From the NCBI GenBank assembly GCA_017528425.1, contig JAFXOV010000021.1, forward strand, positions 1-64,000: a stretch of DNA of 64,000 nucleotides, written 5' to 3'. The translations under genes and the position numbers were made by a program. The notes under the pieces are model-generated. The model saw only the letters and a list, made by a program, of their open reading frames with translations. It did no database searches and was not told the origin of the DNA. The DNA comes from Elusimicrobiota bacterium (GTDB lineage Bacteria; Elusimicrobiota; Endomicrobiia; Endomicrobiales; Endomicrobiaceae). Of this stretch, positions 2,454-50,974 are shown piece by piece (position 1 is the stretch's first letter; each line of letters starts with the position of its first letter).

Positions 2454-3644
2454 ATGATAACAAAACAACTTATTGAAAGAATTTTTTCTGCAGCAAATAT
2501 TTTAAGATGGAACGATCATATAAGACCGTTTGATTTTTTTGAAATAGATAAACAAGCTCACAAAATGATAATTGCATACATCATTGCAAAATTCGATGAG
2601 GAAGAAGGTAAACCAATAGATTGGCTTAAACTTATCGAAGGCGGAATATTTGAATTTTTTCACAGAACAATGCTTACCGATTTAAAACCGGAAGTTTACC
2701 ATGAAATAATGTCTAAAAAAGCAAAAGAGTTGAACAAGTGGGTATTAGAAAATCTTAATGAAGATGTTTCAAAAATCGGACCTGAATTTTCAAAAAGATT
2801 CGAACAATTTTTGTTTGATGACGAATATGCAAAATACGAAAAAAGGATACTTGCCGCTTCTCACGAATTTTCTACAAGATGGGAATTCGGAGTTATTTTC
2901 CCGTTAAACAAAATGCTTTACGGAATAGACAGGACAAAAGAAACGGTTGATGCTTGTGTAGCAAAATATCAGGAATTTGCGGGTGTAAAAAAGTTAATGA
3001 TGAACAAAAAATATTACGGATTTCTTGATATGTGCGGGCAATTGAGATTCCAACAAAGATGGGCACAATCTTTCAGACAACCGAAAACTTCCGTATTAGG
3101 GCACATGTTTATAGTTGCAATATTTGCGTATTTGTATTCTCTTAAAATGAATGTTTGCGAAAAGAGATGTTATAACAATTTCTTCTCTTCTTTATTTCAC
3201 GATTTACCGGAAATTTTAACCAAAGATATAATAAGTCCGGTAAAATCTTCCGTTGAAGGTCTTGAAGGTATAATAAAAGAATTTGAAAAGAAACAAATTG
3301 AAAACAGAATTTTACCGCTACTTCCGGAAACATGGCATTTTGAAATGAAATATTTTGTAGAAAACGAATTTGCCGACAGAGTTGTTGAAAACAATGAAAT
3401 TAAGTTTGTAGATACAATAGAAGAAAAATATAACAAAAACGAATTCGATGCTACCGACGGTAAACTTGTAGAAATGTGCGACAAACTTTCCGCTTATATA
3501 GAAGCTTCTTTAGCTTTAAGGTATGGTATTCATTCCGATATGTTAAACAAATCGAAAATGAAACTATACAACAAATTTGCAGATATAAAAATTGCAAACT
3601 TAACTTTTAAAGATGTTTTTGATTATTTCAAAGAAGAGAACTAA
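2454..3644 (+). CDS. HD-domain phosphohydrolase (YfbR/COG1896-like)
   Basis: The 396-aa protein has an HD metal-dependent phosphohydrolase core in its C-terminal half. His217 lies in SVLGHMFIVAIFAY, His249-Asp250 in LFHDLPEILTKDI, and a distal Asp in the EMCDKLSAYIEASL helix. This is the layout of YfbR/oxetanocin-A-like nucleotidases. The N-terminal half (HRTMLTDLKPEVYHEIM) is helical and probably an additional regulatory or pseudo-HD part. Start choice is clear: GGAGG 8 nt before the ATG. The stop overlaps that of the convergent PBP1A gene by 4 nt. A nucleotide monophosphate substrate is likely but not proven. Confidence 0.8.
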   Translation: MITKQLIERIFSAANILRWNDHIRPFDFFEIDKQAHKMIIAYIIAKFDEEEGKPIDWLKLIEGGIFEFFHRTMLTDLKPEVYHEIMSKKAKELNKWVLENLNEDVSKIGPEFSKRFEQFLFDDEYAKYEKRILAASHEFSTRWEFGVIFPLNKMLYGIDRTKETVDACVAKYQEFAGVKKLMMNKKYYGFLDMCGQLRFQQRWAQSFRQPKTSVLGHMFIVAIFAYLYSLKMNVCEKRCYNNFFSSLFHDLPEILTKDIISPVKSSVEGLEGIIKEFEKKQIENRILPLLPETWHFEMKYFVENEFADRVVENNEIKFVDTIEEKYNKNEFDATDGKLVEMCDKLSAYIEASLALRYGIHSDMLNKSKMKLYNKFADIKIANLTFKDVFDYFKEEN

Positions 3645-16122: not shown

Positions 16123-16208
16123 TGGGTAGAGAGGGAATTGAACCCTCACGGCTCTTGCGAGCCTCAGGATTTTAAGTCCTGTGCGTCTGCCAGTTCCGCC
16201 ATCCACCC
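16123..16208 (-). tRNA. tRNA-Leu (anticodon UAA)
   Basis: The 86-nt gene has acceptor stem GGGTGGA/TCTACCC, D-arm GGCGGAACTGGCAGACGC, an anticodon loop CTTAAAA giving UAA, the long variable arm of class II tRNAs, and T-arm GGGTTCAATTCCC. CCA is not encoded. It is driven by a perfect consensus promoter about 47 bp upstream. Confidence 0.97.
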
Positions 16209-22670: not shown

Positions 22671-22744
22671 TCGGGGTGACTGGACTTGAACCAGCGACCT
22701 CTCCCACCCGAAGGGAGCGCACTAGCCAACTGTGCTACACCCCG
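22671..22744 (-). tRNA. tRNA-Pro (anticodon CGG)
   Basis: The 74-nt gene has acceptor stem CGGGGTG/CACCCCG, D-arm with AGCACAGTTGGCTAGTGC, anticodon arm CTCCC-TTCGGGT-GGGAG (anticodon CGG) and T-arm CTGGTTCAAGTCCAG. CCA is not encoded. It lies between merR and the FlgD-Ig gene on the same strand, so it is probably released from a polycistronic mRNA by RNase P and 3' processing. Confidence 0.96.
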
Positions 22745-34316: not shown

Positions 34317-37300
34317 CTATGCAGCCGCCAAGATACTTCTTACTGTTTGTGCGGAAATATCTAATTGTTTTGTAACTACCAATTTATCTCTCAAGCTATC
34401 ATCCAACAATATGTTAACATTCATAAGATTTGTCTTTGCATTTTCTATCTCATCTTTAGCTTTTATTTCTTTTATTGCAGTTTTATTTGCTATTATTGTC
34501 TTTCTAACATCTTTATTTAATTCTGTTCTTATTGCATCAAACAATTGTTCAACAGTTTGATTTGTGTCCGGTCTTGCATTTAACAACTCATCTAATTTTA
34601 ATTCTGCATCCGCCATAACAAGTTGTATAGCTTTTATTCTAACATACTGTCTGTACTCTTTATATTCTTTTTTCAAGAATTTATCTCTCAATTTTACTTG
34701 ATCTTCTGTTTCAAAAGCAGACTGGCCCAAAACAAAACTGTCTACTATTTGATTTACAGCTCCTCTTATTGTACCAATTGCTTCAAAGTAGTTTCCCCCT
34801 TCAAGTTCAGTTTTTAATCTCATTTGTATTACAGGCGGTAATTGTTGATACATTTCATATAATTTAGCTTTTTCTTGTGATAATTCCTCTCCCGCCTCTA
34901 CATCTTCAATTGCATTCTGCAAATCTTTCATCATTTTTTCTAATTTTGTTGTATCTGATGTTGTTAAGATTGATTTAATTGTGCCACCTTCTCTTAAATT
35001 TTCCAATAATCTTTCTCTTACATTTTTTATCTCTTCTCCAAATTCTTTACCGAAATTATAATCACTTACCGCAGCGGTTTCTTCGGTTATTCTCTGTTCC
35101 GGACTTTTCGGCTTTAATAATTCATTCATTGTTCCGAACATATTTTTAAATATATTTGCTAATCTTTCTCTTAAATTTTCTAATCTGGTTCCTTCATTAT
35201 CGGTACATAATATATTTGCAAGGTTTCCGGTAGATAACATATTAGATAATATAGCTTCTATTTCTTCGGTACTTTTATCTTTTATTACATCTCCATATCC
35301 GATAGCATATTTTTCTGTCATTTCTGCTACTTGATCTACATTTATTATCGGTATTATTCCGTTATCGGTGTATATTCTATTAGCATCAATTCCTTTCGCA
35401 GTTGCCATATTTACATACATTTGAGTTTCTATATGTAATATCCCTTCACTATTATTTGCCGCTAATTCTTCTAATTTGCTTAAGTCTCCTCTTTCTGCTT
35501 CGTCAAGAATTGCTCCATCCAATTTAAAATCATCACTTTCAAAAGCGTCTCTTATTTCTTCAAAGTTTCCTCTTAGTATAAACCTAAAACCATCCGCTCT
35601 TAATCCAGCAATTTCAGATCCATATTTTTCTAACTGACTTGCATTTATTATTATTGTTGTTGCAAATTGTTTGTTACATTTTGATGCAAGATTTCGACCG
35701 ATCTTTTTCATACCCGACAAATCTAAACTTACTTCTACTTCCGCTCTTTGCATCCCGTTTATAGCTGCATTTGCAATTCTGTCTTGAATATTTGCTAATG
35801 ATTGTTTTACTTTTTCATCATCTGAACCAGGAATTATATCACCTCTTTCCGCAAAAGATATTACTTGTTCATTCGAAAACTCTAAATTTTTTCTTCCTTC
35901 ACTATATGCTGCCGCTATCAACTCTTTTATTTTTTCTCTACTTAAATCTATACCCTGTTTTGAATATACAAGTAATTCATTGGCACTTGAATCAAAAGTC
36001 ATTCTGATTTTAGCTTGTTCGTTTATTAATAATCCGCCTCTTTGTCTTGCTTCTTGTTCCGTTATTATTCTTAATTTAACTATATTTATCCCTGCACTTT
36101 TTGCTCTTTCTCTCAATGCTTCATCAACATCTACATCTACTATTATATTCTTTCCTTTCATATCCATAGCTTTATTGGTATCGAATATTTCGCCTATTGT
36201 ATCCATTATCAGCTGTATAGGATTTACACTTGCTTTTACTAAATCAATTAAATATTGATATTGCATTTCCTCTGTTGTACTTTCCTGCTGAACACTTACA
36301 TTACTATTTTCTACAGGCATAACTATTCCCATCTCAATAAATATATCGACAAGTTCTGAGCCTGAAATAAAATCATGAGTTTTTCCTACAATTTCTTTTT
36401 GAATATCTTTTGATGCAGAACTATCAGTTAATTTAACCAAATTTAACAGAAACTCTAAATTACTTTTATCATATGGATCTATCATATTTATAATCATTTT
36501 TTCGAACGGTAATATAATGCTATCTGTTTTTAAAATTTCAAATAAGCTATGAACATACTTTTTTAATTCATCTTTATAATCCGATGATAACGAAGGATTT
36601 CCTTCTATTAATGCTTCTATCATTTCTTCCTTAGTATTAGTATTAATTTCTTTATTTTCTATATTTAACACCAACTTAGCATTATTATTAGAAAAATTTA
36701 TTTCAATTTCTTTATCGCTTAATTTTTTAATATTTGATATTATTAACCCTTCACCAATAGGAATATCATTCGCAGAATATACATAAGGTTTCTTATTTAA
36801 TCTATTTTTTTCTATTCTTATTATCCTTAATCTACCATCAACTATACCTATCATTACAATTGTTTTTTCTGTTCCTCTACTTCCGATTAAAAACTTTGCA
36901 TCGAGGCCACTATCTTTTTTAATTTCCATTATTTTCTGTCTTGTAACAACATCAAATTTATAAAGTTCATCATAAAACATATCATTATAAAATATAAATC
37001 TATTATTCTCGAAACCTATACAATATTTTATTCCTACAGAATTTGTGCCAGCATCTTTAGTTCCCAATATATTATTGTGTTCGTCTACTCTTACTTTAAA
37101 GAACAACTCTCCTTCTTTAATTTTAGAATCCAACTCTGAAAATTGTACTCTTTTAACTGTTGTAGCATATTTGATTTCTGCTGTATAATTATCTTCATAT
37201 TTTTTGCTATCTATTACAAAAAAAGTTTCTATTCTTTTTTCATTCATATTAATAACTACCACATAGATTTTGTTATTAATGTTTTTTATATATAAAGTAT

Positions 37301-40300
37301 TACTTTCTCTTTCCGAACATAAATCCCAATCATTTATTATAGTACCAATTAAATTTTCTGATGAGCTATCCATTAAAAAATCCAATGTTATTGCAGAATT
37401 AAAAGCTACATTTGCGTCTTCATACCTATCTATATATTCTTCATTACCATTCATCAATATAGAATGACCATCACATATATGCAACCAATCATCAAAAGAA
37501 AACTTGATTCCCGTAGGAAAATTTTGATCAGATTCATTGTTTTTAGTTATACGTATAGTTTTATCTGTCGTAAAATCATCACCAAACTTTTTCTTCCAAG
37601 ACATATATGCATATATAACGGCATACATTTTCATTTGATTTTCTCTTTCTCTTTGTTTATCTTCATCAGAAACATCAGCAAACACATAATCATGAATTAC
37701 ACGACTATCTTCTGCCGTAAAACTGCCATCAAGTTTGAACAATTTAGTCAAAGAAGCCAAAACATCTTCCGGTAAATCTTTGGTTCCATTAAATAACTCT
37801 TCTAAAACATTACTCTGATTTGAATCTGTAACAGAAAAATGTTTATTAGTTTTTTTAGAGATTTTTGCAGATATTATTTCAATATCAGCATTTGACAAAG
37901 AAACATTCACTCTTTCTAACATTCTTTTTATTTTATCTGATACTGACACTTCATTTTCTTGCGTTGTTTGTTCAACCTGCGGAACTGTTTGTTGTACTTG
38001 TTTAAACAAGGATATTATCTCTTGTCTAATGCTTTGTTGTACACTTTCGTCTCTCAACTTTTGAATTTTTCTTTGTTTAGATAATTCTATTGCACCCAAA
38101 TTTTCAAGAATCTGTTCTATTTCATATGATTTATATTTGCTTCTTATTAAAAAATTTGTTAATTCATAAAAACTATCTCCTGCAACATCTCTCATTAAAT
38201 TAAAGAATGCTTTTTCGTCATTCGCGCTTACAGACGAAGCAAGCCATCTTTTTTTTGTCTCATAAAATACAGGCGCAAAGTGTTGAGCATCAATTCCTAA
38301 ATATTCTAATTGTTCTTGTAAATCTTTTTGTTTTAATCCAAAATCATAAATTGGTTGAATTAGAGCTTGATTCCGCCCTGTATCAAGAAGTCTTAACAAT
38401 TCAGTTTGCCATAAGTCTATTCTTGCTTCCGAAACGCCACTCATTCTTTTTATATTTTCTATAACAGAATCTATACTAAAATCTATACCGGAATTTTCTA
38501 TAATAGAATCTATAATCGAAGATTCTATCTCTTCTGGCAAAACAGTTTCACCTTTAATACCATTTTTCTTAGCAAAATCTTTAGCTACTATACTAATAAC
38601 TTCTCCCAAAATAAAATATTTTTGTTCGGGAGTGAATTCTTGTTGAGTCGTTTGTGTTTCTTGCTGTTGCTGTTGAGTTTGTTCAACCTGCGGAGCTGTT
38701 TGTTGTGATTCCGGTTGTGAAACAGTAGTTTTTCTTTCTCTTTTTTCCCTTTCTTCTAATAGTCTTTGTGTATTATCATTTTGGGAAACACTTATTGAGT
38801 AAAAACTCGTATCTCCATTTCCTATTTCCTTTTGTATTAAACCAGAGACTATACCATCGGCTGCATCTTTTCGAATATTAGACAGGCCGACATGCATACC
38901 ACTTATTTCCCCAATTGCGGCAAAGCTTAATATCTCTTCAGAGGTTTTCTGCCCTCTATTAAGTGTATTATATACTGAAAAACCTGGCGTTACACTTTTT
39001 TTATTACATCTTAAATATATTGGTTTTGAAAGATCTCCTAAATTACCATGGACAACAGCATTTTTTATAAACTCACGCATTATTATATTTCCATAAAATT
39101 GAACGCCGGAATTTCCTGAAAAAGAATAAAACCATGTTTTATCCAATAGACTGACTAATTGCCTTCCGAATTGGAAATATAATGCAATTTTCTGCATTTT
39201 TGTTAAATTTTCCACATTATAAGCTCTTGAAAAAGGATATATTATCAATAATGTATCTTCTTCTCCGTTTTTCATTAATTTTTTTATTTTCTTTTCATTT
39301 ATATCTTTACCATCTGTATCTACACCTGCATCCAAGAAAACAGTTTCAATATTTTCATCTTTAACACTTATACCTTCTTCTGTCTGCAAAGCTTTTTTTA
39401 ACGTTTCCAATTGTGTTCTAATTTCAGGATCTTTAGGTTTTTCTCTACCATATTCATCTTTTGTTACTTCTATAGATTCACCACTTAAATCTGATACTAT
39501 TCTAGGCATTTCCTCTTGCTTAACAGCACTTACAAGAGTTCCTGCATCGTTACTTTGAATAGTAAGATTATGTCTGGAAACTTTTATTTTCAAATCAAGA
39601 AAATCTTCTATACTTTCGATTGTTGTATATCGTGATGATTCCAATGTAAAAGCATCCTCGCCTTCAGACTCCACATAAATGACTAATTTTCTACCTTTTA
39701 TACCAATATCTATATAATCTTTTGTCTCTTCATCCTCATTTGTTAAACCTGCTAATTTTGCCGTTACAGAATAAATTTTTCCGTTTTTCTCTATCAAAAT
39801 CGTAGCCGGTTTTTCTTCATCATTTCTAAATACTACTTTATCTTTTGATTTTGATTTAACTTGCTCTTGGTGTATTTTCTGGACACCAAGATTCCACATA
39901 AGGTGGGTTATGAATTCTGTAGCAAAAAGGGTAGGTATTCCAAGAAATCCTGCAAAAGGACTAAGGGTTACAGCCAATACAGTACCTGCTCCTACACCCA
40001 GCCCAATACTTAATGCTCTTATTACCCATATAGCAATTATCTGTGCCATAGTAGGATTTTCATGTTCTTCAATAAAACTTTCAATTTCTATATTTTTTCC
40101 AAACACAGTTGTATTTATTGGAAATATTTTCCAAAAATCCAACATCTCATACCATACACCTAATACTGTTCCTTTGAAACTGGACCTATCTATACCTTTA
40201 TCTTCTAAATATTTTTTTGTCTTTTCTGTTTGTAATTCTACATAGTAAGATTTACCTGAATGCCTGTTCCTAATTACATCCGCAAGCCTACTAAGAAAAT

Positions 40301-43300
40301 TACTCGGTAATATCGTAGCAACAGATAATAATCTCTTTTGTTCTTTGCTTATTTTTGGTATATTTTTTTGAGTCTGTACTGTATTACTTTCAACTTCTTT
40401 CGCTTCTGTAATAAATTCTTCAAACAAAACTTGTACCTCATCATCAACCATAAATATTGTGTGGTTAGAACTTTCTATTTCAGCATAAAAAATATCTTTA
40501 AGTGTTATTTCCGTTGCATCATCATGTTCTTCAAGATAACTGTTAATTGCATATTCCAAATTACCGGTACCGGAAGACAAAGAATAACCGAAAAGCATTT
40601 CTTTACCCGCTTCGGTGACAATCTGTGGACAAAAGTTTATATTTCTTCTTGACAATTCTTTCTTTATCATTTCAGCTGTCACATAAGAATGACAACAAGA
40701 CAAATCTATAGTTATGTGTTCTATCGTATTTTTTATATACTCATCACCTTCCCCTTTCATATTTTTTATTGCTTTTTCTATGGAATCTGCAATTTTTTTA
40801 TCTACTCTAACGGAACCAAACTCTGAATATGCCCATATTCCATCTGCACCATGTCCGTTCAATACTAACAATAAATTTTCACTTTCTCCTTCCTTATATC
40901 TAAAATTAGGAATTTCATTAAAAAAGGCATCTACTTTTCTTCTTAGTTTAAATTCTCTTATTGGACTAAAATTAGAAAGAGATTTTTGCATATCCGTAAG
41001 TTCTTCACGTTTATATTCATCTCCGGCAATATAAATTCCAGCAAATAATTGAAGAACTGTCGTGACAACAGGGAAAACCATCGGCAAATATAAGAAACTA
41101 AATGCAGGGAAAATTAAGGATAGAGCGAATAGTCCTAAAACTCCTATTGCGACAGGTATTCCAAGTTTATCTAATTTTTCAAAAAATTTGTTAAGTTTTT
41201 TTCTTCCGGCATAAAAATCTTCTTCACCTGTTTCCTCATAGACAGCCAACATCTGTTCAATTTCTTTTTCAATTTCCGCTTCATTAATTTCCTCTCCGTT
41301 CTCTTTCATTTCATTAGTAAGTATAACTCTTAACATGTCTCTATAAGCTTTGGATGTAAATCTGTAACCTTCAGTCCCCATTCTTATATCAGCTCTTTCA
41401 TTGTGATTGGCAATCGCTACTCTTGTATATTTGCCAATAAACTTTTTTTCGCCGGACTTTTCAAGAATTCGCGACATTATATCTATTGCTTTTGGTATAA
41501 GAGTTTCTAAATTCTCATTAACAAACTCTTCCGTAAGCCCCGTTGCTGAAATAAATCTACACATTTTTATGGCAGTTCTGTACTGTATTGAAACAGATAA
41601 GTCTTCGTATTCTTTCTGAAATTCGGGAGAAAGAAAAATTTTCAATGCCAACGCATTGTTTTCTAAAGAAAAATGGTAAATGGTTTTTTTTGACAAATCG
41701 TTCAACAAATCAATTAATTTGGAATAACTGCTATCATCCATTTCTATATCTGTAGAAAGCAGTTCCAAAAATAGCATTGCAGAAGCTATATCTGTTACTC
41801 TAAAGTTTTTTTCTTTTAAAAAATTTAAAGTATCCTTATTAATTTCATTAAGTGAACGAATTGTTGATGATAATTCATTGTCATAATATCCACTTGCATT
41901 TAAAAGAGGCTCTATATTTTTTGCCAAATATTTAACTGTTTCTTCATCAAAATCTTTCGTTAAAGGGAGAAGTTTTCTTGCTAATTTTTTCCTCATACTC
42001 CAACTAACCATTTCTCCGCCGGAAAATTCACTAACAAAAATATCTCCGTATTTATATCCGGAAATTATAGATTTTGCACGCATTTTTTTTATATTCTTTA
42101 GAGAAAAACTACGTCTCTTTAAGAAATCCATTTCATCTATCTCGCCTTTCAAGTATTTTTTCAAATTATTTATTATATACCTGTTTGTTTTTTTTGCGGT
42201 AAAAGCTCCCTGTAACATGTATCCAATTTCTCTACCTGAAAAATCTTCATTTTCAATATCAATATTTTCTTCTTTTACAAATTCATCCAAGATTTTACAT
42301 ATTTTATATATTCTATTAACCAAATCCTTATCATCTTCTAAAATGTTGATATCTGAATCTGCAAACCAAAGATCTCCAAAGGAAAATTTTGCAGATCCGT
42401 TGGTACGAAACCACTTCATCAATATTCTTGCTCTATCTATATTTTCTTGAAGCTGATTAATATTTATTTTCTCTTCAAAATAAGGTTTAAATATACTTAT
42501 TGCAATATTAGGACGCATTCCATTAGTTATGAAATAATATAAATCATTGTGAATAAAATTTATATCCAAATCTCTTTTAGATACTTTTTTGAGTTCCATC
42601 AATACTTTAAGGTAATCTCTAAGATAATATTTATGAATATTTGATAATTGTTCTTTTATATCATCGGATAACTTTCCGGTTAATTTTTCTATTTCTTCTA
42701 TTACTTTATCAATATCCTCATAGTCAATTTCTATGTTCTGCGTTTGTTGAGCCATATATTGTTCTTGAGATGATAATACTGTTGATATTGTTTCCGGTAA
42801 TTTATCACTTGAAAAATATTTATCAGAAATTGTTTTCTTTCCTATATCCAAAAAATCATATGCCCCAACAACAAATTCAACAGAATCGGCAATAACTTTT
42901 TTCATCTTTTCAAGTTCACTTTTACTGTATTTTTTAAAGTATTCCATTGCTCTAAGTTCATCGACATCTTTAGTCATAATATCATAAATTACCAATATTT
43001 CTCGTTTTGTTATCGCATTTCCTTGTGCCGTTATTGCATTATCATTTATTTTGTTCTGCATCGCCATTATATCCTTGGGGAAGAACATTAAATTTCTCGG
43101 CAAAAAGAAATAAACTTTTTTCCCTGTTCGATTACAATCCAACAAAACTTCGGGAATGTATTCTTCAGGTACATAGCCATTGGCAGATTTAGATTTTCCG
43201 GAATCAAAAAGAAGTTTTCTGGCACCATCAAACCAATCACATAAATTCATTCCATATTCAGAATCAATAAAAGCTCTTAAGAAATCATATCTTTCTTCTG

Positions 43301-46300
43301 TCTTTCCATCCGGCATTGTTTTACTGAAAAAAGAATCATCTTGTATTGTTTGTATAACTGAACGTAACCCAAAAACATACCCATTATATCTATTAAAACG
43401 TTTATCTTCATTATCATATTTTTTTCTTGTTACATTTGCTTTTCTTCCCTCTGTCCATGCATCATATACAGTTTTGTATTTCACCAAATTGCTAAATTGT
43501 TCAAGCTTGCTATATTCTTCACTCGTTTTGTATTCTTCGTATTCTTTTTTATATGCATCATACCACTCAGTAACTTTATTGTATATATCCGTAAAACTTA
43601 TAAGACCGCAAAAAACGTTAAGATATTCATACCCTTCACTTGCCTTATATTCTTCATACCATTTATCCAAATTATTTTTTTCAGTTCTTTCTTCGGGATT
43701 TAAAAACGTTTTACTCATCAACTCATGAAGTCTTTGAAGATTTTCATACTCTTTACTTTCCTTGTATTTCTCGTACCATTCTATTTCTTTATCATTAAAA
43801 TGAGATTTATCCATAAGTTCATCAAGAAGTTCAAGTTTATCGTATAGTTCTTTTTTATTATATTCTCCATACCACAACATAGCCGTATGTAATAAAGATG
43901 CATCATCTGCTTTCCAAGAATCCCATACTTCTTTTACTTCTTCATCTAAATTCAAAAATTTTAGAATACCTTTTAATTCCGGATACTTTACATATGAAAT
44001 ATCTATATCATAAAAATAATGAAGTATATTTGTGACCGTCAATGTTGTTATTATGGCAGGAATTACAACCGCTATTGTGAGTGGATTGATTAAGCTTATT
44101 ATGGCAGGTACAATTCCAAAACCTATCCCTATCGATAGAGCCCTTATTCTCCAAACAACAGCTGTTGCAATTTTCCTTTGTAAAGGAGTTTGAGGGCGGT
44201 GTGCCGCAACAAAATTCGGCATCCAAAAAGCAAATGTTTCAATATTTACACCTATTGCTTTACCTAATCTGGTGTTTTTAAAATTTTCCCCGGCTTTGTC
44301 CTTATATATCCTTCTTATTATTTCTGTGTTACCAAGTCTGTCCAAGAAAGCTTTTGTTCTATCAAGAAGGAGTTCCATATATATCATATTCCCTTTCTTC
44401 GCTAACCATCTTTGTACAAGAACAGTGCGTTCATGTTCTTCGTATCTATCAAGATATTCTGTTATCTCCATTTCTTTCGTACCATAAGTAATTTCATCCG
44501 AAGAAAGGTCTAACATCTCAAAAACTTTCTGCCTTAAATTATCAAACAAATTTTCCATCTCTTCATTCGTTACAGCAAAGACAGTATAATTTGCAGAGGC
44601 TCTTTCTGCATTATGAAAATCAGCCAAAGTTAATCCTTTTTCTTTTCGCTCTTCAAATTCGCTTTTGTGTGTCAAAATATATTCTATTAAAGATACTTCC
44701 TTGTTACTCAATGTTACATTTGAGCTTCCGCTAACAAGATCTGTCGAACTAATTGAAACAGGAGAACTCTTCATATCTATAAATTTGCCTTTCAAACTTT
44801 CATAACCGGCATCAGTTACTATATTAGGAAAAGATGGTTTTAGATTTTCTTCTTCTAATCGTTTTTTCAATTGTTCTATTATATTTATTGAAGAAAAATA
44901 TGACCAACAAGTAGCCAAATCCAATGTTATTTCACTTAAATCCAAATTCACATCTTTTCTCTTTGCATCTACTAAAGCTTCAACTATATCTTCTACCTTT
45001 AAATTGTGTTCACCTGTAGATAAATGTGTTGGTTGTCCATGCCCGGAATACATTGCATACATATTTTTTAATCCGTATCTGGCTTTATTTTCAGGATAAA
45101 ATCTAATAGTATCCAACCATCCATTTATGGTAACTTTATCATCAGAATAATCTCCCGTACATTTAAAATAATCTCTTTTAGGATTAATTCCCAACAATTT
45201 AAAAATTGATTCCCAACCTTCATTAGTACATTCTTCTTCCATACCTAAAAGGCAATAAAAGCCTGTTTCATTCGTTACGGTATTTCGTGATTGTAGTTGT
45301 TCTACTCCTTTATAATATATATCCATCAACATTGGGAGTATTTTATCTATTTGTTGTTCAGTTAAATCAGCAGCCTTATCACCTATTGTGTAATAAAGCA
45401 ATCTTCCAATCTTCATTGCATCTTCATAATCCGTCATTTTGGTTTTTGTTCGTTTATTATCTTGAAAATATTTATTCAACAATATTTTAAAAGTTAAATC
45501 ATTTGCCTCTGTAGATATATCATCAATTCTTCTCTCGGAAAGTTCCCTTGCTAACGGCAATAAAATTTTATTAAGATTTTCGTCTGAAACATTCAAGTCT
45601 CTTGCAATACGTACAAAAGAGCCTATTATCGCCGATTTATTAACCCTATTACTACTAATAGGTGCTCGTTGAAAAATATCATATAACTCTTCCCATCTTG
45701 TTCTAGCCGGTGTTCTATCCGTCTGTTTTGCTGCTATCTTAGAACTTTTTTTAGCTTTAACTCTCGTTTTCTTACCATCTTTTGTTGTTTCAAATACACT
45801 TTCGTCTTGAGAACTTTCATCATATACGCTCTCTAATTTTACATTTTCTTGTATGGTTAAATTTCCATCCTCATCTATTACCGCAAAAACCCCTCTTTTA
45901 TCACTTTTAGTATCAAATATCTCAATCATAACCAGATTTTTGCCATCTTCCGATTTTACATTTGAAATAACATCTCCGTAGTATAAATCATTAAAAGAAA
46001 CATCTGATCTGAATTTTCTAAAAAACTCTGTTACTCTATCCTGCTCTTCTAAAATTTTGCTAAATCCAAAAACCCTCATTCCTTGATCGAACGGCATAAC
46101 ATATAAATTTCCATCAACATAAAAAGAAAAGCTATTGTCCGTAGGTTCCAACATCAGATATCCATTTCTTGTCGCTTCATATTCGTCTTGTAAACGACTC
46201 ATCTCTTTTTTTTCTACTTTATCTCTGTTTATATGGTGTGTCCACTCATGAACAATAGTTGATAATACTTGTCTGTCAAGATTAAATGTTTCATCTTCAT

Positions 46301-49300
46301 TATAATTAACGGGAATTATTATAAAATCTTTTCTCTGTCCGTTAATTTCAACCGTATGCGCACAAGCACTTCCCAAGAAATATTCATCATCAGAATCTGT
46401 CTTCATAAAAATTACTTCAGGAACATTATCATAATCACTGGGCAAATTTAAAAAAGACAATGCTTTACCAATATCACTTCTAAGAAAATCTCTAACTCCT
46501 TGAGAACTTGAAACGGTAAGAGATGTTTCCAAATATTTTTTTGACTCCGGTGCAAACATTGTATTATTTCTTTTAAAACTGTTATAAAGTTGTTCAAAAG
46601 CCTCAGGGGAAGATAAAATTTGTTCCATATTTGGAGTTGAATATTGTATTTCAGTTGAAGCTTGTTCCACTTGAGTTATAGCTTCTTGCGGTGCTATAGA
46701 TTCTGCCGTTGAATGTTGTAAATATCCGGGAATAATAGCGGATAACAATAATGTCCCAATTAAAAATATGCCCGCAATTATAAGCCTTATTTTTCCTTGC
46801 TTTCCTTTTTGTTCTTGTTGCGTTGCAGGTGTTTCATCTTGTTTTTTTTCTTCGGGTTGTTCCACACTTGCTTGTTGATCCGCTTGTTTCTGAGAAGCTT
46901 GTTCTTCTGTTATTTCCGTTTGCTCCTTTTCTATCTGTTGTTGTTCCTGTCCTTCAAAACTGAAATATTCTTCCAATAGTTTATCTATTTGTTTTTCATG
47001 TTGTCTATAAAATTCCGGATTTTTCTTTTGAGGATATATTCTCATAAATTCAGCTATTGACATTGCATACGGTTTACCATCTATTCCTTTAACAACAATA
47101 TCATATGGTAATACAGTATCCCTACCTTCGTCCGTATCAATTATAATCATCGAGCCTTCTGCTTTTTTCGACTCTTCTTTTTCCTTCACTTCTCCAAAAG
47201 AAACTGTTACACTAACTTCTTTTTTTGTAGCATTGAATATTTGTCTTACTCTTTTATCCTCACTTACTTCCGTTCTATAAATTCTTTCAAACTTTTCCCT
47301 TTTCATAAAACTTACAGATCCGGTTGCACTTATAACAAACATAGGATTTACGGAGATATTATCTGTTCTTGCTGAAAGAGTTGAATTATCCGGTTCCACA
47401 TCATATATTCTTATACTAAAGTGGTTATCTTTATCATATTTAGATTTCAAAACATAATATCTGTTACCTTGTTCATCATATTTTTCTTCTCCTTTTTTAA
47501 CGCCTTCTAAATATCCGTGATCTTTTGCATATTCTAAATCAAATGCCTGCACATCAACTTCCGCACTTGTTACCGAACCTCTCCAAATTAAATCATCCGC
47601 CGTTAATGCCGGTCTTATAAAATTTTTTATTATTTCAAATATTTTTTTCGCTGCATTTTTCCCTTTTTCTCTTAATTGCTCATTAACCTTTTCTTTCTCA
47701 GCTGTCATATCTACATCCGCATCTTCCATATCAATAACATGAATTCTTAACTTTTCTAAATCATCTCTTCCTTTTACACCTTTTTCAAAGAATATACCCA
47801 ATAATTCTTTAACTTCCGGAGATAATTCTTTAGATCTTAATAAATCATATAGTTCTCTTTTTGATGCACTAACTTTACTATCATCAAAAATTACATCAAT
47901 TACTTCTCCTTTTTTATTTCTAACAACATCTTTAATTACACCTTCTTCTATTAAATCAACCAAGAATAAAAGATATTCAACTGAATTATTTATCGCTCTT
48001 TTTTCTGTTATTGCAGGAGATTGATTATCTCGTGCCAATATTCTGCTATTTATTAAAAATATCTCATTTTTTTCACGATATGCATTTAATAAATCATTTT
48101 CTATAGATACTGCTCTACCACCGACAATAATTGCAAAATTCGGAACATTTTTTATTTTTGCAACAGCCTCGGAATAAACTTTCCCGTTTTCGGCAACAAA
48201 CTTAAATGCATTCATAAACTCCATTAAATTTGTTCCGTTTTCCAACAAATCCTGTTTATCCATTTTTCCAAGTAAATCTTTTATATCTTCAAATGTTTGC
48301 TTATTCGGAAATTCGTCAGGCTCGACATACTCTAAGTAATCAGTTGCTGTAACATAAACCATTAAAGCATCATACATTTGAGACAAGACTGTTGCTGTAG
48401 CATCTATGCTACCTTTACTTGCTGTCGGGCTCGACAATATACCAAATCTTTCCTTTCCAAGAGTCTTTGATATTTCTTCCATCAAAGGTGCTAATACAGA
48501 TATTGTTATCCTGTCATAATCACCTTGCGGTGCAGAATAACCTACCAAAGAGAAGAACATTTCAACTTTGGCAAATGCTTTTTCTATTTCTCTTCTTACT
48601 TGTTCAGAAGATTTTATTTCCGAAATATTCCACAATTGTTTTAATAAATCTAACTGCTCTTTTAGTTCTTTTTCACTACATTCTTCTAATTCTTTATCAT
48701 CATATTTAGATAGTGCTTCTAATATTCGTTTATACTTATCACTCCTGCTTTTTAATAACTGTATATGATGTTCGGATAATTTAGGCAATGCTTTTATTTG
48801 ATTAATTATCTTGCTTTTTATTTCCTGTTCTCTTTTTTGTGCACGTTGTCTTTTGTTCTTTTCTCGTTTTTGTATACGTTGTCTTTTGGATTCTATTTTG
48901 TTTTTTGTTTTTCTCAATGCTCTTCTGATACCTACTGCAGCCTTTTGCACAACTGTACCACTCTCCATCGTACGCATTTCTTCTTCGGCATTTTTTAATA
49001 TTTCCTTTATGGAATCGACTTGCCCATATTTTAAAGCGTCTCTTAATTCATCCAAATCAACAAATTTCGCCAAATCAACACCGACTTTTTCACCACTTAT
49101 TTTCTCTAAAAATTTCACAAAATCATTATCATCGGATTCCAAGAATTTGCTCTCTTCAATATTTCTCTTTATATTTCTCATCTGTTCGGATATTTCTTGG
49201 GCTGTTTTTTCTTCTTCAGCCGTTAAACTCATTGTATCTATCTGGGCTACACTATTCGGAAAAAGTTCTTTTGCTATATCAACACCGAAAGCCATAACTG

Positions 49301-50927
49301 CAGCTTTTACTCTAATTTCTTCGGAATATGCGGAAAACGGTAACGTTGCCAATGTTTGGAAAGAAATTTTACTTTGTTCTTTTGCTATTTCATAATATGT
49401 TTCTTCTGCGAGTTTTACTCCGTCTGTAACATTCGGAGTTATAACGATATAACTTACTCCGTGATTTTTTAATATCTCTGTTACCGTTTGAGAATGGAAA
49501 CCTCCGGTTATTACAACATCTACTTCTTTTACACCTTTCATATTGTCTATTATTTTGTTTACTTCACCTTTGGCTTCCACTTCGTTTTCAAGTTTACCCA
49601 ACACACTTTCTTTCGTAAACATATTGTCGGTAAAATATATGTTTCTGTCGGTATTTATTTTATAGAATTTATCAGCTTCGGCTATATATTCATCCAACAT
49701 GCTTAATACTTTATTATCTACGTACTTATTCCATAATTGTCTAAATGTATCTATATTTTCTTTATAATATTCATAGTCGCTTGCCGTAATTTTACTGCTT
49801 ACATAATCTCTTAAATATCTTTCAAAATTTGTTAAAAAAACGACTTCCATTTGTACTTTCGTTTCGGAAAATTTCGTATTTATTTCTTCAGTCAATCTTT
49901 TTTCTTCGTCTATTAATTCCAACGGATTTATTTTTTGACTGAATTCTATATAACCGAAATAGTTATCCAAATTAGGGAAATTTACCGTTAAATCCAATCC
50001 CAATTCTCTGCTTATTCTTACGATATATCCGTACAATTTATCTATCTTTGAAAAATTTTCTGTATTATCAACCAACATTTGGTATGCGGAATTTGCTAAA
50101 TTTTCTCTCAACAACAAAATTAAGTTTTGTAATTCGTTGGTTATTTTCGAATAATCTAAAGTTTTCTGCATTTCCAAAAGAGACATATAAGTAAATGTGT
50201 TTTCGTATTTACTTAAATCTATTCCCAATTTATCTATATGTTTGGATAACAAAGCATAATATTTCTGAGGTGTTATTGTTCCTTCTCTGTAATTTTTTGA
50301 AAGTTCTTCTAATTTATACTGCCTTTTTGTGTAATATTGTTTTTTTACTTCGGCCAAAGATTCGCTAATTGCATTTAATATTACATTTATCTTTTCTTGA
50401 TTTTCTACTATCTCACCGAATCTCTTTAAATTTTCCAAGTACGGAATTTTTTCTTCCAATCCGCTTATTATTTCCGTCTTCCCGCTTACTAAGCTGTAAT
50501 ATTCCGCACCTGTCAATCTTCCCGTATCCAACATCTTTTTCAAAATTTCAACTTTCTTGGATGGTTCTATTCTGTCACTTATCCATTTCGTACTTAGTTG
50601 TCCGTATACACCTTCCAAATAAACATTTTTTACTCCGAAACTTTTATCGAATATTTCTATTATGTTACTGATGTTTTCTTGAACTTTCGGATGGCAATGC
50701 AAATCTTGTATGTTTATTATTACTCTGTCGGTTCCTGCATAATGTGCACTTGTTATTTGACCATAGTTATAGGGCAACATGAAATCTTTAAATATTTGTT
50801 TATATTTTATTGTGGCCTCTTCGTTTGTCATGGCATTGGCAACCGTAGGCGCAACAACAAAAGACCAAACCAAACAAATTGTAGTTATGATACTTATAAA
50901 CTTTTTAAATTTCATTAAAATTTTCAT
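34317..50927 (-). CDS. giant 5,536-aa multidomain membrane protein (caspase-like, zincin, GHKL modules)
   Basis: One uninterrupted frame. In order: signal peptide 1-32 (cut after TVANA); ChaN/TraB-like domain about 35-560 (QDLHCHP 74-80, GGFH 475-478); a basic coiled region near 690-760; a Q/E-rich linker and transmembrane span about 1377-1400; zincin motif HEWTHH 1560-1565; caspase/C11-like domain with His1963 (SGHG) and Cys2007 (ATCWSY); hairpin 2262-2308; W-Y repeats 2346-2493; hairpin 3255-3300; a second caspase-like domain with His3359 (NGHG) and Cys3412 (SCCHSY); hairpin 3632-3680; GHKL ATPase-like domain about 3900-4060 (N-box EFIKNAVVHG, GMHVGL at 4010); Q-rich linkers near 4085 and 4315; long helical C-terminus. 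The ATG at 50927 has GGAGG; a longer frame enters the upstream hairpin. Domain names are motif-based; the overall function is unknown. Confidence 0.9.
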   Translation of the reverse strand: MKILMKFKKFISIITTICLVWSFVVAPTVANAMTNEEATIKYKQIFKDFMLPYNYGQITSAHYAGTDRVIINIQDLHCHPKVQENISNIIEIFDKSFGVKNVYLEGVYGQLSTKWISDRIEPSKKVEILKKMLDTGRLTGAEYYSLVSGKTEIISGLEEKIPYLENLKRFGEIVENQEKINVILNAISESLAEVKKQYYTKRQYKLEELSKNYREGTITPQKYYALLSKHIDKLGIDLSKYENTFTYMSLLEMQKTLDYSKITNELQNLILLLRENLANSAYQMLVDNTENFSKIDKLYGYIVRISRELGLDLTVNFPNLDNYFGYIEFSQKINPLELIDEEKRLTEEINTKFSETKVQMEVVFLTNFERYLRDYVSSKITASDYEYYKENIDTFRQLWNKYVDNKVLSMLDEYIAEADKFYKINTDRNIYFTDNMFTKESVLGKLENEVEAKGEVNKIIDNMKGVKEVDVVITGGFHSQTVTEILKNHGVSYIVITPNVTDGVKLAEETYYEIAKEQSKISFQTLATLPFSAYSEEIRVKAAVMAFGVDIAKELFPNSVAQIDTMSLTAEEEKTAQEISEQMRNIKRNIEESKFLESDDNDFVKFLEKISGEKVGVDLAKFVDLDELRDALKYGQVDSIKEILKNAEEEMRTMESGTVVQKAAVGIRRALRKTKNKIESKRQRIQKREKNKRQRAQKREQEIKSKIINQIKALPKLSEHHIQLLKSRSDKYKRILEALSKYDDKELEECSEKELKEQLDLLKQLWNISEIKSSEQVRREIEKAFAKVEMFFSLVGYSAPQGDYDRITISVLAPLMEEISKTLGKERFGILSSPTASKGSIDATATVLSQMYDALMVYVTATDYLEYVEPDEFPNKQTFEDIKDLLGKMDKQDLLENGTNLMEFMNAFKFVAENGKVYSEAVAKIKNVPNFAIIVGGRAVSIENDLLNAYREKNEIFLINSRILARDNQSPAITEKRAINNSVEYLLFLVDLIEEGVIKDVVRNKKGEVIDVIFDDSKVSASKRELYDLLRSKELSPEVKELLGIFFEKGVKGRDDLEKLRIHVIDMEDADVDMTAEKEKVNEQLREKGKNAAKKIFEIIKNFIRPALTADDLIWRGSVTSAEVDVQAFDLEYAKDHGYLEGVKKGEEKYDEQGNRYYVLKSKYDKDNHFSIRIYDVEPDNSTLSARTDNISVNPMFVISATGSVSFMKREKFERIYRTEVSEDKRVRQIFNATKKEVSVTVSFGEVKEKEESKKAEGSMIIIDTDEGRDTVLPYDIVVKGIDGKPYAMSIAEFMRIYPQKKNPEFYRQHEKQIDKLLEEYFSFEGQEQQQIEKEQTEITEEQASQKQADQQASVEQPEEKKQDETPATQQEQKGKQGKIRLIIAGIFLIGTLLLSAIIPGYLQHSTAESIAPQEAITQVEQASTEIQYSTPNMEQILSSPEAFEQLYNSFKRNNTMFAPESKKYLETSLTVSSSQGVRDFLRSDIGKALSFLNLPSDYDNVPEVIFMKTDSDDEYFLGSACAHTVEINGQRKDFIIIPVNYNEDETFNLDRQVLSTIVHEWTHHINRDKVEKKEMSRLQDEYEATRNGYLMLEPTDNSFSFYVDGNLYVMPFDQGMRVFGFSKILEEQDRVTEFFRKFRSDVSFNDLYYGDVISNVKSEDGKNLVMIEIFDTKSDKRGVFAVIDEDGNLTIQENVKLESVYDESSQDESVFETTKDGKKTRVKAKKSSKIAAKQTDRTPARTRWEELYDIFQRAPISSNRVNKSAIIGSFVRIARDLNVSDENLNKILLPLARELSERRIDDISTEANDLTFKILLNKYFQDNKRTKTKMTDYEDAMKIGRLLYYTIGDKAADLTEQQIDKILPMLMDIYYKGVEQLQSRNTVTNETGFYCLLGMEEECTNEGWESIFKLLGINPKRDYFKCTGDYSDDKVTINGWLDTIRFYPENKARYGLKNMYAMYSGHGQPTHLSTGEHNLKVEDIVEALVDAKRKDVNLDLSEITLDLATCWSYFSSINIIEQLKKRLEEENLKPSFPNIVTDAGYESLKGKFIDMKSSPVSISSTDLVSGSSNVTLSNKEVSLIEYILTHKSEFEERKEKGLTLADFHNAERASANYTVFAVTNEEMENLFDNLRQKVFEMLDLSSDEITYGTKEMEITEYLDRYEEHERTVLVQRWLAKKGNMIYMELLLDRTKAFLDRLGNTEIIRRIYKDKAGENFKNTRLGKAIGVNIETFAFWMPNFVAAHRPQTPLQRKIATAVVWRIRALSIGIGFGIVPAIISLINPLTIAVVIPAIITTLTVTNILHYFYDIDISYVKYPELKGILKFLNLDEEVKEVWDSWKADDASLLHTAMLWYGEYNKKELYDKLELLDELMDKSHFNDKEIEWYEKYKESKEYENLQRLHELMSKTFLNPEERTEKNNLDKWYEEYKASEGYEYLNVFCGLISFTDIYNKVTEWYDAYKKEYEEYKTSEEYSKLEQFSNLVKYKTVYDAWTEGRKANVTRKKYDNEDKRFNRYNGYVFGLRSVIQTIQDDSFFSKTMPDGKTEERYDFLRAFIDSEYGMNLCDWFDGARKLLFDSGKSKSANGYVPEEYIPEVLLDCNRTGKKVYFFLPRNLMFFPKDIMAMQNKINDNAITAQGNAITKREILVIYDIMTKDVDELRAMEYFKKYSKSELEKMKKVIADSVEFVVGAYDFLDIGKKTISDKYFSSDKLPETISTVLSSQEQYMAQQTQNIEIDYEDIDKVIEEIEKLTGKLSDDIKEQLSNIHKYYLRDYLKVLMELKKVSKRDLDINFIHNDLYYFITNGMRPNIAISIFKPYFEEKININQLQENIDRARILMKWFRTNGSAKFSFGDLWFADSDINILEDDKDLVNRIYKICKILDEFVKEENIDIENEDFSGREIGYMLQGAFTAKKTNRYIINNLKKYLKGEIDEMDFLKRRSFSLKNIKKMRAKSIISGYKYGDIFVSEFSGGEMVSWSMRKKLARKLLPLTKDFDEETVKYLAKNIEPLLNASGYYDNELSSTIRSLNEINKDTLNFLKEKNFRVTDIASAMLFLELLSTDIEMDDSSYSKLIDLLNDLSKKTIYHFSLENNALALKIFLSPEFQKEYEDLSVSIQYRTAIKMCRFISATGLTEEFVNENLETLIPKAIDIMSRILEKSGEKKFIGKYTRVAIANHNERADIRMGTEGYRFTSKAYRDMLRVILTNEMKENGEEINEAEIEKEIEQMLAVYEETGEEDFYAGRKKLNKFFEKLDKLGIPVAIGVLGLFALSLIFPAFSFLYLPMVFPVVTTVLQLFAGIYIAGDEYKREELTDMQKSLSNFSPIREFKLRRKVDAFFNEIPNFRYKEGESENLLLVLNGHGADGIWAYSEFGSVRVDKKIADSIEKAIKNMKGEGDEYIKNTIEHITIDLSCCHSYVTAEMIKKELSRRNINFCPQIVTEAGKEMLFGYSLSSGTGNLEYAINSYLEEHDDATEITLKDIFYAEIESSNHTIFMVDDEVQVLFEEFITEAKEVESNTVQTQKNIPKISKEQKRLLSVATILPSNFLSRLADVIRNRHSGKSYYVELQTEKTKKYLEDKGIDRSSFKGTVLGVWYEMLDFWKIFPINTTVFGKNIEIESFIEEHENPTMAQIIAIWVIRALSIGLGVGAGTVLAVTLSPFAGFLGIPTLFATEFITHLMWNLGVQKIHQEQVKSKSKDKVVFRNDEEKPATILIEKNGKIYSVTAKLAGLTNEDEETKDYIDIGIKGRKLVIYVESEGEDAFTLESSRYTTIESIEDFLDLKIKVSRHNLTIQSNDAGTLVSAVKQEEMPRIVSDLSGESIEVTKDEYGREKPKDPEIRTQLETLKKALQTEEGISVKDENIETVFLDAGVDTDGKDINEKKIKKLMKNGEEDTLLIIYPFSRAYNVENLTKMQKIALYFQFGRQLVSLLDKTWFYSFSGNSGVQFYGNIIMREFIKNAVVHGNLGDLSKPIYLRCNKKSVTPGFSVYNTLNRGQKTSEEILSFAAIGEISGMHVGLSNIRKDAADGIVSGLIQKEIGNGDTSFYSISVSQNDNTQRLLEEREKRERKTTVSQPESQQTAPQVEQTQQQQQETQTTQQEFTPEQKYFILGEVISIVAKDFAKKNGIKGETVLPEEIESSIIDSIIENSGIDFSIDSVIENIKRMSGVSEARIDLWQTELLRLLDTGRNQALIQPIYDFGLKQKDLQEQLEYLGIDAQHFAPVFYETKKRWLASSVSANDEKAFFNLMRDVAGDSFYELTNFLIRSKYKSYEIEQILENLGAIELSKQRKIQKLRDESVQQSIRQEIISLFKQVQQTVPQVEQTTQENEVSVSDKIKRMLERVNVSLSNADIEIISAKISKKTNKHFSVTDSNQSNVLEELFNGTKDLPEDVLASLTKLFKLDGSFTAEDSRVIHDYVFADVSDEDKQRERENQMKMYAVIYAYMSWKKKFGDDFTTDKTIRITKNNESDQNFPTGIKFSFDDWLHICDGHSILMNGNEEYIDRYEDANVAFNSAITLDFLMDSSSENLIGTIINDWDLCSERESNTLYIKNINNKIYVVVINMNEKRIETFFVIDSKKYEDNYTAEIKYATTVKRVQFSELDSKIKEGELFFKVRVDEHNNILGTKDAGTNSVGIKYCIGFENNRFIFYNDMFYDELYKFDVVTRQKIMEIKKDSGLDAKFLIGSRGTEKTIVMIGIVDGRLRIIRIEKNRLNKKPYVYSANDIPIGEGLIISNIKKLSDKEIEINFSNNNAKLVLNIENKEINTNTKEEMIEALIEGNPSLSSDYKDELKKYVHSLFEILKTDSIILPFEKMIINMIDPYDKSNLEFLLNLVKLTDSSASKDIQKEIVGKTHDFISGSELVDIFIEMGIVMPVENSNVSVQQESTTEEMQYQYLIDLVKASVNPIQLIMDTIGEIFDTNKAMDMKGKNIIVDVDVDEALRERAKSAGINIVKLRIITEQEARQRGGLLINEQAKIRMTFDSSANELLVYSKQGIDLSREKIKELIAAAYSEGRKNLEFSNEQVISFAERGDIIPGSDDEKVKQSLANIQDRIANAAINGMQRAEVEVSLDLSGMKKIGRNLASKCNKQFATTIIINASQLEKYGSEIAGLRADGFRFILRGNFEEIRDAFESDDFKLDGAILDEAERGDLSKLEELAANNSEGILHIETQMYVNMATAKGIDANRIYTDNGIIPIINVDQVAEMTEKYAIGYGDVIKDKSTEEIEAILSNMLSTGNLANILCTDNEGTRLENLRERLANIFKNMFGTMNELLKPKSPEQRITEETAAVSDYNFGKEFGEEIKNVRERLLENLREGGTIKSILTTSDTTKLEKMMKDLQNAIEDVEAGEELSQEKAKLYEMYQQLPPVIQMRLKTELEGGNYFEAIGTIRGAVNQIVDSFVLGQSAFETEDQVKLRDKFLKKEYKEYRQYVRIKAIQLVMADAELKLDELLNARPDTNQTVEQLFDAIRTELNKDVRKTIIANKTAIKEIKAKDEIENAKTNLMNVNILLDDSLRDKLVVTKQLDISAQTVRSILAAA
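43451..43892 (-). repeat. degenerate W-Y-E-x-Y protein repeats inside the giant gene
   Basis: Residues about 2346-2493 hold four to five imperfect units of roughly 32-38 residues. Each begins W-Y-[GED]-x-Y-[NK] (WYGEYNKKELY, WYEKYKESKEY, WYEEYKASEGY, WYDAYKKEY) followed by a Leu-rich helix. The charged, helical character suggests a spacer or rod. The block sits immediately after the first membrane hairpin. Confidence 0.75.
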
Positions 50928-50938
50928 ATTGCCTCCAA

Positions 50939-50974
50939 TAAAAAAAGCTTGTATTGTTTTTATACAATACAAGC
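50939..50974 (-). terminator. terminator-like hairpin directly before the giant gene's ribosome site
   Basis: Minus-strand stem GCTTGTATTG/CAATACAAGC (10 bp, 8-nt loop) is followed by a T7 tract and then, within 3 nt, the GGAGG of the giant gene. The hairpin contains the last codons and stop of the 166-aa gene. It is a classical intrinsic terminator shape placed where it would limit transcription into the giant gene. Confidence 0.8.

What the first reader, a model, noticed from the sequence alone, without database searches (positions are those of the whole stretch)
38748..39230. GHKL (histidine-kinase/anti-sigma type) ATPase-like domain buried at residue ~4,000
MREFIKNAVVHGN matches the N-box (Glu3952, Asn3956, His3960). 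SVYNTLNRG sits at the G1 position, GMHVGLSNI at the G2 (GxGL-like) position, and GDTSFYSISV matches the terminal GTxFxI strand. No HisKA dimerisation domain precedes it. An ATP-binding module in the same chain as protease-like domains suggests nucleotide gating and argues that this part of the protein is cytosolic.
Basis: partly seen in the sequence, partly recalled or inferred. Interest (0 to 1): 0.7.

Follow-up and report, generated by a model that had tools for sequence, protein, structure and literature searches.

The report
Anti-sigma-kinase-like domain in giant proteins
A 5,551-residue protein of a rumen bacterium carries a domain folded like the ATP-binding switch kinases that control bacterial sigma factors; it recurs, with an altered nucleotide-contact residue, in other giant proteins, often in the same chain as protease-like domains, so it is probably a ligand-sensing switch in giant proteins whose role is unknown.

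Summary
Residues about 3874-4068 of a 5,551-aa ORF (38769-39353, minus strand) form a GHKL (Bergerat) domain. Pfam does not see it, but AlphaFold2 gives a confident model (pLDDT 87, pTM 0.84) whose best solved relatives are the anti-sigma kinases SpoIIAB/RsbW (Z 9.1), and a family profile reaches stand-alone RsbW-type proteins of Omnitrophota. It is a recurrent module: 63 matches in 46 ORFs of 946-8,068 aa in 21 of 340 Elusimicrobiota genomes, plus Omnitrophota giant ORFs. The N-box (ExxKNAxxHGN) is the best conserved part, but the adenine-contact Asp of G1 is Asn in 39 of 43 Endomicrobiaceae-set copies (Asp in 19 of 23 Omnitrophota giant copies), and GxGxG is mostly GxHxG. Nucleotide binding is plausible but unproven. 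Of 20 module-bearing ORFs of 3,500 aa or more, 17 also carry a caspase/legumain-fold His-Cys domain. 'Cytosolic' is not supported: most of these proteins start with a signal-peptide-like segment, and in 6 of 20 no membrane segment lies between it and the first GHKL copy. Best reading: a divergent RsbW-type ligand-gated switch or dimerisation module, not a histidine kinase.

The parts
34317..50972 (-). giant ORF, 5551 aa from TTG; probable start ATG at codon 16
50832..50927 (-). signal-peptide-like N-terminus (hydrophobic segment after basic residues, AxA-type end; the reading as a signal peptide is recalled knowledge)
49293..50795 (-). N-terminal region of about 500 aa (..INIQDLHCHP..) shared by many Endomicrobiaceae giant ORFs; no named family
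44502..45404 (-). caspase/legumain-fold module 1 (SGHG...DLATC His-Cys pair)
40377..41087 (-). caspase/legumain-fold module 2 (NGHG...DLSCC), homologous to module 1
39393..39875 (-). region of about 160 aa, beta-rich by eye, directly before the GHKL module; in tandem copies of relatives it repeats with the GHKL module
38769..39353 (-). GHKL (Bergerat-fold) module, residues about 3874-4068
39042..39080 (-). N-box MREFIKNAVVHGN (E3967, K3970, N3971, H3975, G3976, N3977)
38952..38978 (-). G1 position SVYNTLNRG; N4002 stands where canonical relatives have Asp
38874..38900 (-). G2 position GMHVGLSNI (GxHxG instead of GxGxG)
38787..38816 (-). last strand-hairpin region GDTSFYSISV

Best explanation
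It is a divergent GHKL module of the RsbW/SpoIIAB (anti-sigma kinase) type that became a recurrent building block of giant proteins in Endomicrobiaceae and Omnitrophota. Shown: predicted fold, homology, recurrence, tandem copies, purifying selection, conserved pocket motifs, and frequent presence in one chain with caspase/legumain-fold domains. Inferred: the pocket still binds a small ligand, most likely a Mg-nucleotide held mainly through the N-box and the glycines, with base recognition altered by Asp-to-Asn; binding orders the lid and changes domain pairing along the chain, so the module acts as a ligand-gated switch or dimerisation element for neighbouring modules, including the peptidase-like ones. 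It is not a histidine kinase and not part of an ordinary anti-sigma partner switch.
For: Fold: AF2 pLDDT 87, pTM 0.84; Foldseek ranks 2-6 are SpoIIAB, prob 0.82-0.92; VIA Z 9.1 to 1til_E over 124 residues, and 45 of 50 rows are by title anti-sigma kinases, histidine kinases, CheA, bacteriophytochrome or PDK/BCK. Sequence: 14 of 33 members hit HATPase_c_2 (E<=1, best 0.0041), next families 2 of 33; the A3 profile finds Omnitrophota ORFs of 128-180 aa, 3 of 3 scanned being HATPase_c_2 at 1e-24 to 1e-29, and two giant-ORF copies (L127, L132) pass its cut-off. Recurrence: 63 matches, 46 ORFs, 21 of 340 genomes. Pocket conservation. Selection. Co-occurrence with the caspase-like module: 18 of 41 ORFs, 17 of 20 at 3,500 aa or more. 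No HATPase_c_2 and no STAS match in the own genome.
Against: Foldseek gives no match at E<=0.001; hhalign against 26 GHKL sequences of the phylum gives only 2.1% probability, though in register. G1 Asp and the middle G2 Gly are gone, which could mean that nothing is bound. The caspase-like module was not found in the other 23 of 41 module-bearing ORFs (some on short contigs, most in other genera), so coupling is not general. A signal-peptide-like start may put the module where ATP is scarce.
Confidence: 0.55

Rival explanations
1. Pseudo-GHKL: the fold is kept as a scaffold or protein-protein interface, probably outside the cytoplasm, and binds no nucleotide.
For: G1 Asp is Asn in 39 of 43 copies and the middle G2 glycine is kept in only 9 of 43; signal-peptide-like N-termini, with no TM-like segment before the first GHKL copy in 6 of 20; tandem copies.
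Against: N-box E 40, N 41, G 41 of 43, and E, N, H, G 23 of 23 in Omnitrophota giant copies; these pocket residues are the least variable columns, which a mere scaffold would not need.
Confidence: 0.25
2. Active Ser/Thr protein kinase like RsbW/SpoIIAB or CapK, phosphorylating another module of the same chain or a partner.
For: Closest fold is SpoIIAB; N-box Glu and Asn kept; RsbW-like kinases act outside sigma control too: CapK phosphorylates a STAS repressor (PMC13373217, passages).
Against: No STAS domain found in the genome (controls ring in 10 of 14) and no STAS in the protein by Pfam; G1 changed; possible export.
Confidence: 0.15
3. Catalytic domain of a histidine kinase fused into a giant protein.
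For: Histidine kinases are in the same fold list at Z 5-6.5; giant Omnitrophota proteins with histidine-kinase and receiver domains are in print (PMC12419801, passages).
Against: SpoIIAB/RsbW-type rows rank above them (Z 8-9); no HisKA, HATPase_c or receiver found in the protein; the weaker Omnitrophota profile matches are mostly RsbW-size ORFs.
Confidence: 0.04
4. Chance resemblance of motifs in a long uncharacterised protein.
For: Pfam finds nothing in the window copy.
Against: Conserved family, confident fold, purifying selection.
Confidence: 0.01

Closest known systems
SpoIIAB / RsbW anti-sigma factor kinases (Pfam HATPase_c_2)
   Same: Fold (Z 9.1 to 1til_E), N-box ExxxNAxxHG, profile homology through Omnitrophota stand-alone proteins
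   Different: About 35 extra residues in front (alignment starts at model residue 36); G1 Asp to Asn; GxGxG to GxHxG; sits in giant ORFs; no STAS partner found
CapK (HTH-STAS-GHKL kinase)
   Same: RsbW-like GHKL domain in a larger protein (PMC13373217, passages)
   Different: CapK has its own STAS and HTH domains and a STAS substrate; none detected here
Sacsin (4,579-aa eukaryotic protein; Hsp90-like repeats are recalled; PMC3629688 seen only in a search listing)
   Same: GHKL-type modules repeated within one giant chain
   Different: Sacsin's are Hsp90-like by recall; the module here is RsbW-like; no homology tested
Giant proteins of Omnitrophota and Elusimicrobiota (PMC10066038, PMC11573180, PMC12057145, passages; West-Roberts et al. 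preprint seen only as a reference)
   Same: Same kind of protein and lineages; multiple TM segments
   Different: The passages read mention adhesion or carbohydrate modules and few annotated domains; an RsbW-type module in one chain with caspase/legumain folds is not mentioned in them
Clan CD cysteine peptidases (legumain, caspases)
   Same: The companion module has the fold (Z 13.9) and a conserved His-Cys pair
   Different: No Pfam match; activity untested

Membership tests
GHKL superfamily | Bergerat alpha/beta sandwich | tested here: met
   predicted structure:
GHKL superfamily | N-box with Glu and Asn | tested here: met
GHKL superfamily | G1 box DxGxG | tested here: not met
   VYNTL in the window; N in 39 of 43 copies, D in 19 of 23 Omnitrophota giant copies; the canonical row L122 has D and G in these columns
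GHKL superfamily | G2 box GxGxG | tested here: not met
   GMHVG in the window; middle position H 24, G 9 of 43; outer G 42 and 35 of 43
GHKL superfamily | ATP binding or hydrolysis | not testable with these tools
   needs purified protein
RsbW/SpoIIAB anti-sigma kinase (HATPase_c_2) | Score over Pfam's cut-off | tested here: not met
   window copy: no family; relatives L127 and L132 pass
RsbW/SpoIIAB anti-sigma kinase (HATPase_c_2) | STAS-domain partner in the genome | tested here: not met
   0 STAS matches in G000; controls ring in 10 of 14
Sensor histidine kinase | Dimerisation domain with phospho-accepting His before the ATPase domain | tested here: not met
   No HisKA family at E<=1 in any quarter of the protein; a very divergent one could be missed
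Clan CD cysteine peptidase (companion module) | Caspase/legumain fold | tested here: met
   predicted structure:
Clan CD cysteine peptidase (companion module) | Catalytic His and Cys | tested here: met
   HG and Cys present in 14 of 14 aligned copies by inspection; H nearly invariant and C invariant in A4
Clan CD cysteine peptidase (companion module) | Peptidase activity | not testable with these tools
   needs assay

The most novel reading that the evidence does not exclude
The module is an exported GHKL domain whose base-recognition residue was changed from Asp to Asn in Endomicrobiaceae, so that it no longer reads bacterial cytosolic ATP but another purine ligand (guanine-type, or a nucleotide met outside the cell or inside a ciliate or flagellate host), and on binding it switches caspase/legumain-fold domains in the same giant chain: a GHKL-gated giant protease acting at the cell surface or in a host.
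Probability: 0.12. Interest if true: 0.88.

Novelty: new variant of a known kind. Interest (0 to 1): 0.6.

Why it matters
Giant proteins of Elusimicrobiota and Omnitrophota have few annotated domains and no known mechanism. A recognisable switch fold that recurs in them, in tandem and in one chain with caspase/legumain-fold domains, gives a concrete handle: a domain of about 200 residues that can be made and tested for ligands on its own. The near-fixed Asp-to-Asn difference between the two lineages is a natural experiment on GHKL base recognition, and the N-termini raise the unusual possibility of a GHKL domain outside the cytoplasm.

Tried and rejected
Direct look-ups led nowhere: Pfam, NCBIfam and PADLOC scans of the four quarters of the protein found no credible family, and PDB sequence searches found nothing credible for the window copy or for the A3 profile. 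Profile-profile comparison with 26 GHKL sequences of the phylum was weak (2.1%; reversed 0.2%, 30 shuffles at most 0.6%). A single-sequence scan of genome contigs found no relative; an alignment was needed. A scan of viral contigs found none.

Rejected: chance motif; histidine kinase; ordinary anti-sigma partner switch. A Tiki/ChaN-like reading of the N-terminal region came from memory and was not supported by Pfam or PDB sequence searches. Topology from hydropathy alone is crude: in the window protein basic residues lie before the TM-like segment at residues 1397-1415, which disagrees with a cleaved signal peptide, so I do not assign a side there.

Rows dropped before counts: two fragmentary copies and L091 were left out of A3; identical copies were counted once; 5 of 46 module-bearing ORFs (genomes G226, G331, G332) were outside the 61 genomes used for co-occurrence. 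In one search, 24 of 27 ORFs with a GHKL copy had a closed N-terminus; 20 of these had a hydrophobic peak starting within the first 40 residues; start codons were not checked.

Literature: searches did not show a paper describing this module; only openly licensed PMC papers are held, so this is weak evidence of absence. Motif names and the roles of the N-box, G1 Asp and G2 glycines, and the signal-peptide reading, are recalled knowledge.

Full report
Setting. The window lies in an unnamed 2.08-Mb genome (G000:C31). The finding sits in a minus-strand ORF of 5,551 codons, 34317-50972. Its neighbours are an argC-like gene on one side and, on the other, a 166-aa ORF without a Pfam match and then tetrapyrrole-methylase, GAF-HD and GH57 genes: ordinary genes with no obvious partner. 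A relative in the same genus (G003) has a contig of 145,336 bases, the length of DJWX01000004.1, a Candidatus Ruminimicrobiellum ovillum contig; so the genus is most likely Ruminimicrobiellum (Elusimicrobiota, Endomicrobiaceae, rumen; taxonomy in PMC11257099, passages).

The observation. Neither Pfam nor a PDB sequence search recognises the window copy. A whole-genome search with the domain, however, found matches in 16 of 61 genomes (own and relatives), all in ORFs of more than 1,000 aa. Iteration gave 34 copies, and 30 were aligned. A profile over the phylum (alignment A3, 33 copies) finds 63 matches in 46 ORFs in 21 of 340 genomes: 20 genomes of the window's family plus one other, G226. ORF lengths run from 946 to 8,068 aa, median 3,719. 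The own genome has five copies in four giant ORFs. Copies are often tandem, up to five in one ORF counting a fragment, and in the genus they repeat together with a preceding region of about 130-160 residues. Pairwise dN/dS is 0.10-0.27 in all 8 pairs tested.

The fold. AlphaFold2 on A3 gives pLDDT 87.0 and pTM 0.84, with the order beta-alpha-beta-alpha-alpha(N-box)-beta-beta-alpha-alpha-beta-beta. Foldseek's ranks 2-6 are SpoIIAB (prob 0.82-0.92), although none of 611 matches reaches E<=0.001. VIA-align gives Z 9.1 (rmsd 3.5, 124 residues) to SpoIIAB 1til_E, then other SpoIIAB chains, RsbW and other anti-sigma factors at Z 8-9, and histidine kinases at Z 5-6.5; by title 45 of 50 rows are anti-sigma kinases, histidine kinases, CheA, bacteriophytochrome or mitochondrial PDK/BCK kinases. 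The tool's background for models without a clear match is a best Z of 7-8, so the Z alone is modest; the uniformity of the list is the stronger point.

Homology. Among the 33 A3 members, 14 hit HATPase_c_2 at E<=1 (best 0.0041) and the next families have 2. In 384 genomes of the Omnitrophota phylum the profile matches 83: the best matches lie in long ORFs, weaker ones in ORFs up to 42,913 aa, and by my count 53 of the 90 listed matches lie in ORFs of 128-180 aa. I fetched 13 of these 53 short ORFs and scanned three with Pfam; all three are HATPase_c_2 at 1e-24 to 1e-29. Giant-ORF copies L127 (3.1e-8, Omnitrophota) and L132 (2.4e-6, G226) pass its cut-off. In a quick tree of 80 rows the 13 short ORFs form one side of a branch (SH-aLRT 99.8), and one clade of the 43 Endomicrobiaceae-set copies is not rejected (p-AU 0.887); many branches are long and 40 of 77 inner branches are weak. 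Against this, hhalign with 26 GHKL sequences of the phylum gave only 2.1%. Together: a distinct branch of the RsbW type.

The pocket. In 43 distinct Endomicrobiaceae-set copies (including one locus labelled Gastranaerophilales, L075) the N-box residues are E 40, K 38, N 41, H 34, G 41, N 38; in 23 Omnitrophota giant copies E, N, H and G are 23 of 23. At the G1 position the Endomicrobiaceae set has N in 39 of 43 and the Omnitrophota giant copies D in 19 of 23. At G2 the outer glycines are 42 and 35 of 43 and the middle one is H 24, G 9. The canonical stand-alone L122 shows D, G and GxGxG in the same columns. The ten least variable of 176 columns all lie in the N-box, the following Pro, G1 or G2. 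That is what a working pocket would show, but the residue that (recalled) reads adenine has changed. I therefore rate nucleotide or other ligand binding as likely and ATP binding as open.

Companions in the chain. Two homologous modules (44502-45404, 40377-41087) have HG and Cys in 14 of 14 aligned copies. AlphaFold2 on 10 copies (A4) gives pLDDT 83 and pTM 0.83; Foldseek's top matches are legumain and caspase-7 (32 matches at E<=0.001) and VIA gives Z 13.9 to legumain. So they are caspase/legumain-fold domains, though Pfam does not see them. Among 41 GHKL-bearing ORFs in the 61 genomes, 18 carry this module; among those of 3,500 aa or more, 17 of 20. In 18 of 18 at least one caspase-like copy lies N-terminal to a GHKL copy. 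This supports a linked architecture in the genus and near relatives; it does not show gating. No caspase-like match was found in the termite Endomicrobium genomes G024 and G033 or in the five closed Omnitrophota ORFs.

Location. The protein begins with a signal-peptide-like segment. Of 24 GHKL ORFs with a closed N-terminus, 20 have a hydrophobic peak starting within the first 40 residues; in 6 of these 20 (L081, L084, L088, L138, L139, L149) no TM-like peak lies between it and the first GHKL copy, and L089 looks the same with a sub-threshold peak. If these signals work, those copies are outside the cytoplasm. In the window protein five TM-like peaks lie between.

Mechanism. GHKL domains work by closing a lid over a nucleotide and changing how domains pair (recalled). 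The kept N-box and glycines and the lost base contact fit a switch with altered ligand recognition. An ordinary partner switch is unlikely: no HATPase_c_2 protein and no STAS domain were found in the genome. Kinase action on a partner cannot be excluded; CapK shows that RsbW-like domains serve outside sigma control (PMC13373217, passages).

What is known. Huge proteins are reported as enriched in Elusimicrobiota and Omnitrophica with little annotation (PMC11573180, passages), giant ORFs in Omnitrophota are discussed as symbiosis or adhesion factors (PMC10066038, passages), and giant Omnitrophota proteins with histidine-kinase/receiver domains are mentioned (PMC12419801, passages). The passages read do not mention an RsbW-type module in one chain with caspase/legumain folds; the searches named under Tried and rejected did not show one. 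Verdict: real, a new variant of a known fold in an interesting setting, function inferred.

Noticed in passing
window 49293-50795 (-), residues about 60-560: N-terminal region with INIQDLHCHP...VYLEG is shared by giant ORFs across Endomicrobiaceae (16-23 of the fetched loci per 200-aa slice) and matches no named family.
   Followed up: partly
window 45813-46475 (-), residues about 1500-1720: A HEWTHH sequence of the HExxH kind suggests a zinc metallopeptidase-like domain; Pfam sees nothing.
   Followed up: partly
window residues about 2150-2320 and 3490-3680 of the giant ORF: Each caspase-like module is followed by a similar region with a TM-like stretch (..RALSIG..), duplicated within the protein.
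   Followed up: no
window 35673-36275 (-), residues about 4900-5100: Another region near the C-terminus recurs in 8 fetched loci; unidentified.
   Followed up: no
L128 (G422:C2:372544-373893): An Omnitrophota open frame of 42,913 aa holds a weak copy of the module (E 6.7e-4).
   Followed up: partly
L075 (JAQVCB010000087.1): A contig labelled Candidatus Gastranaerophilales carries a copy of the module in a 3,508-aa ORF; transfer or mis-binning, not tested.
   Followed up: no
L131: In an Omnitrophota giant ORF the GHKL copy is followed by a Fis-type HTH_8 region (E 3.1e-16).
   Followed up: no
window 16123-16208 and 22671-22744 (-): Two tRNA genes; ordinary.
   Followed up: no
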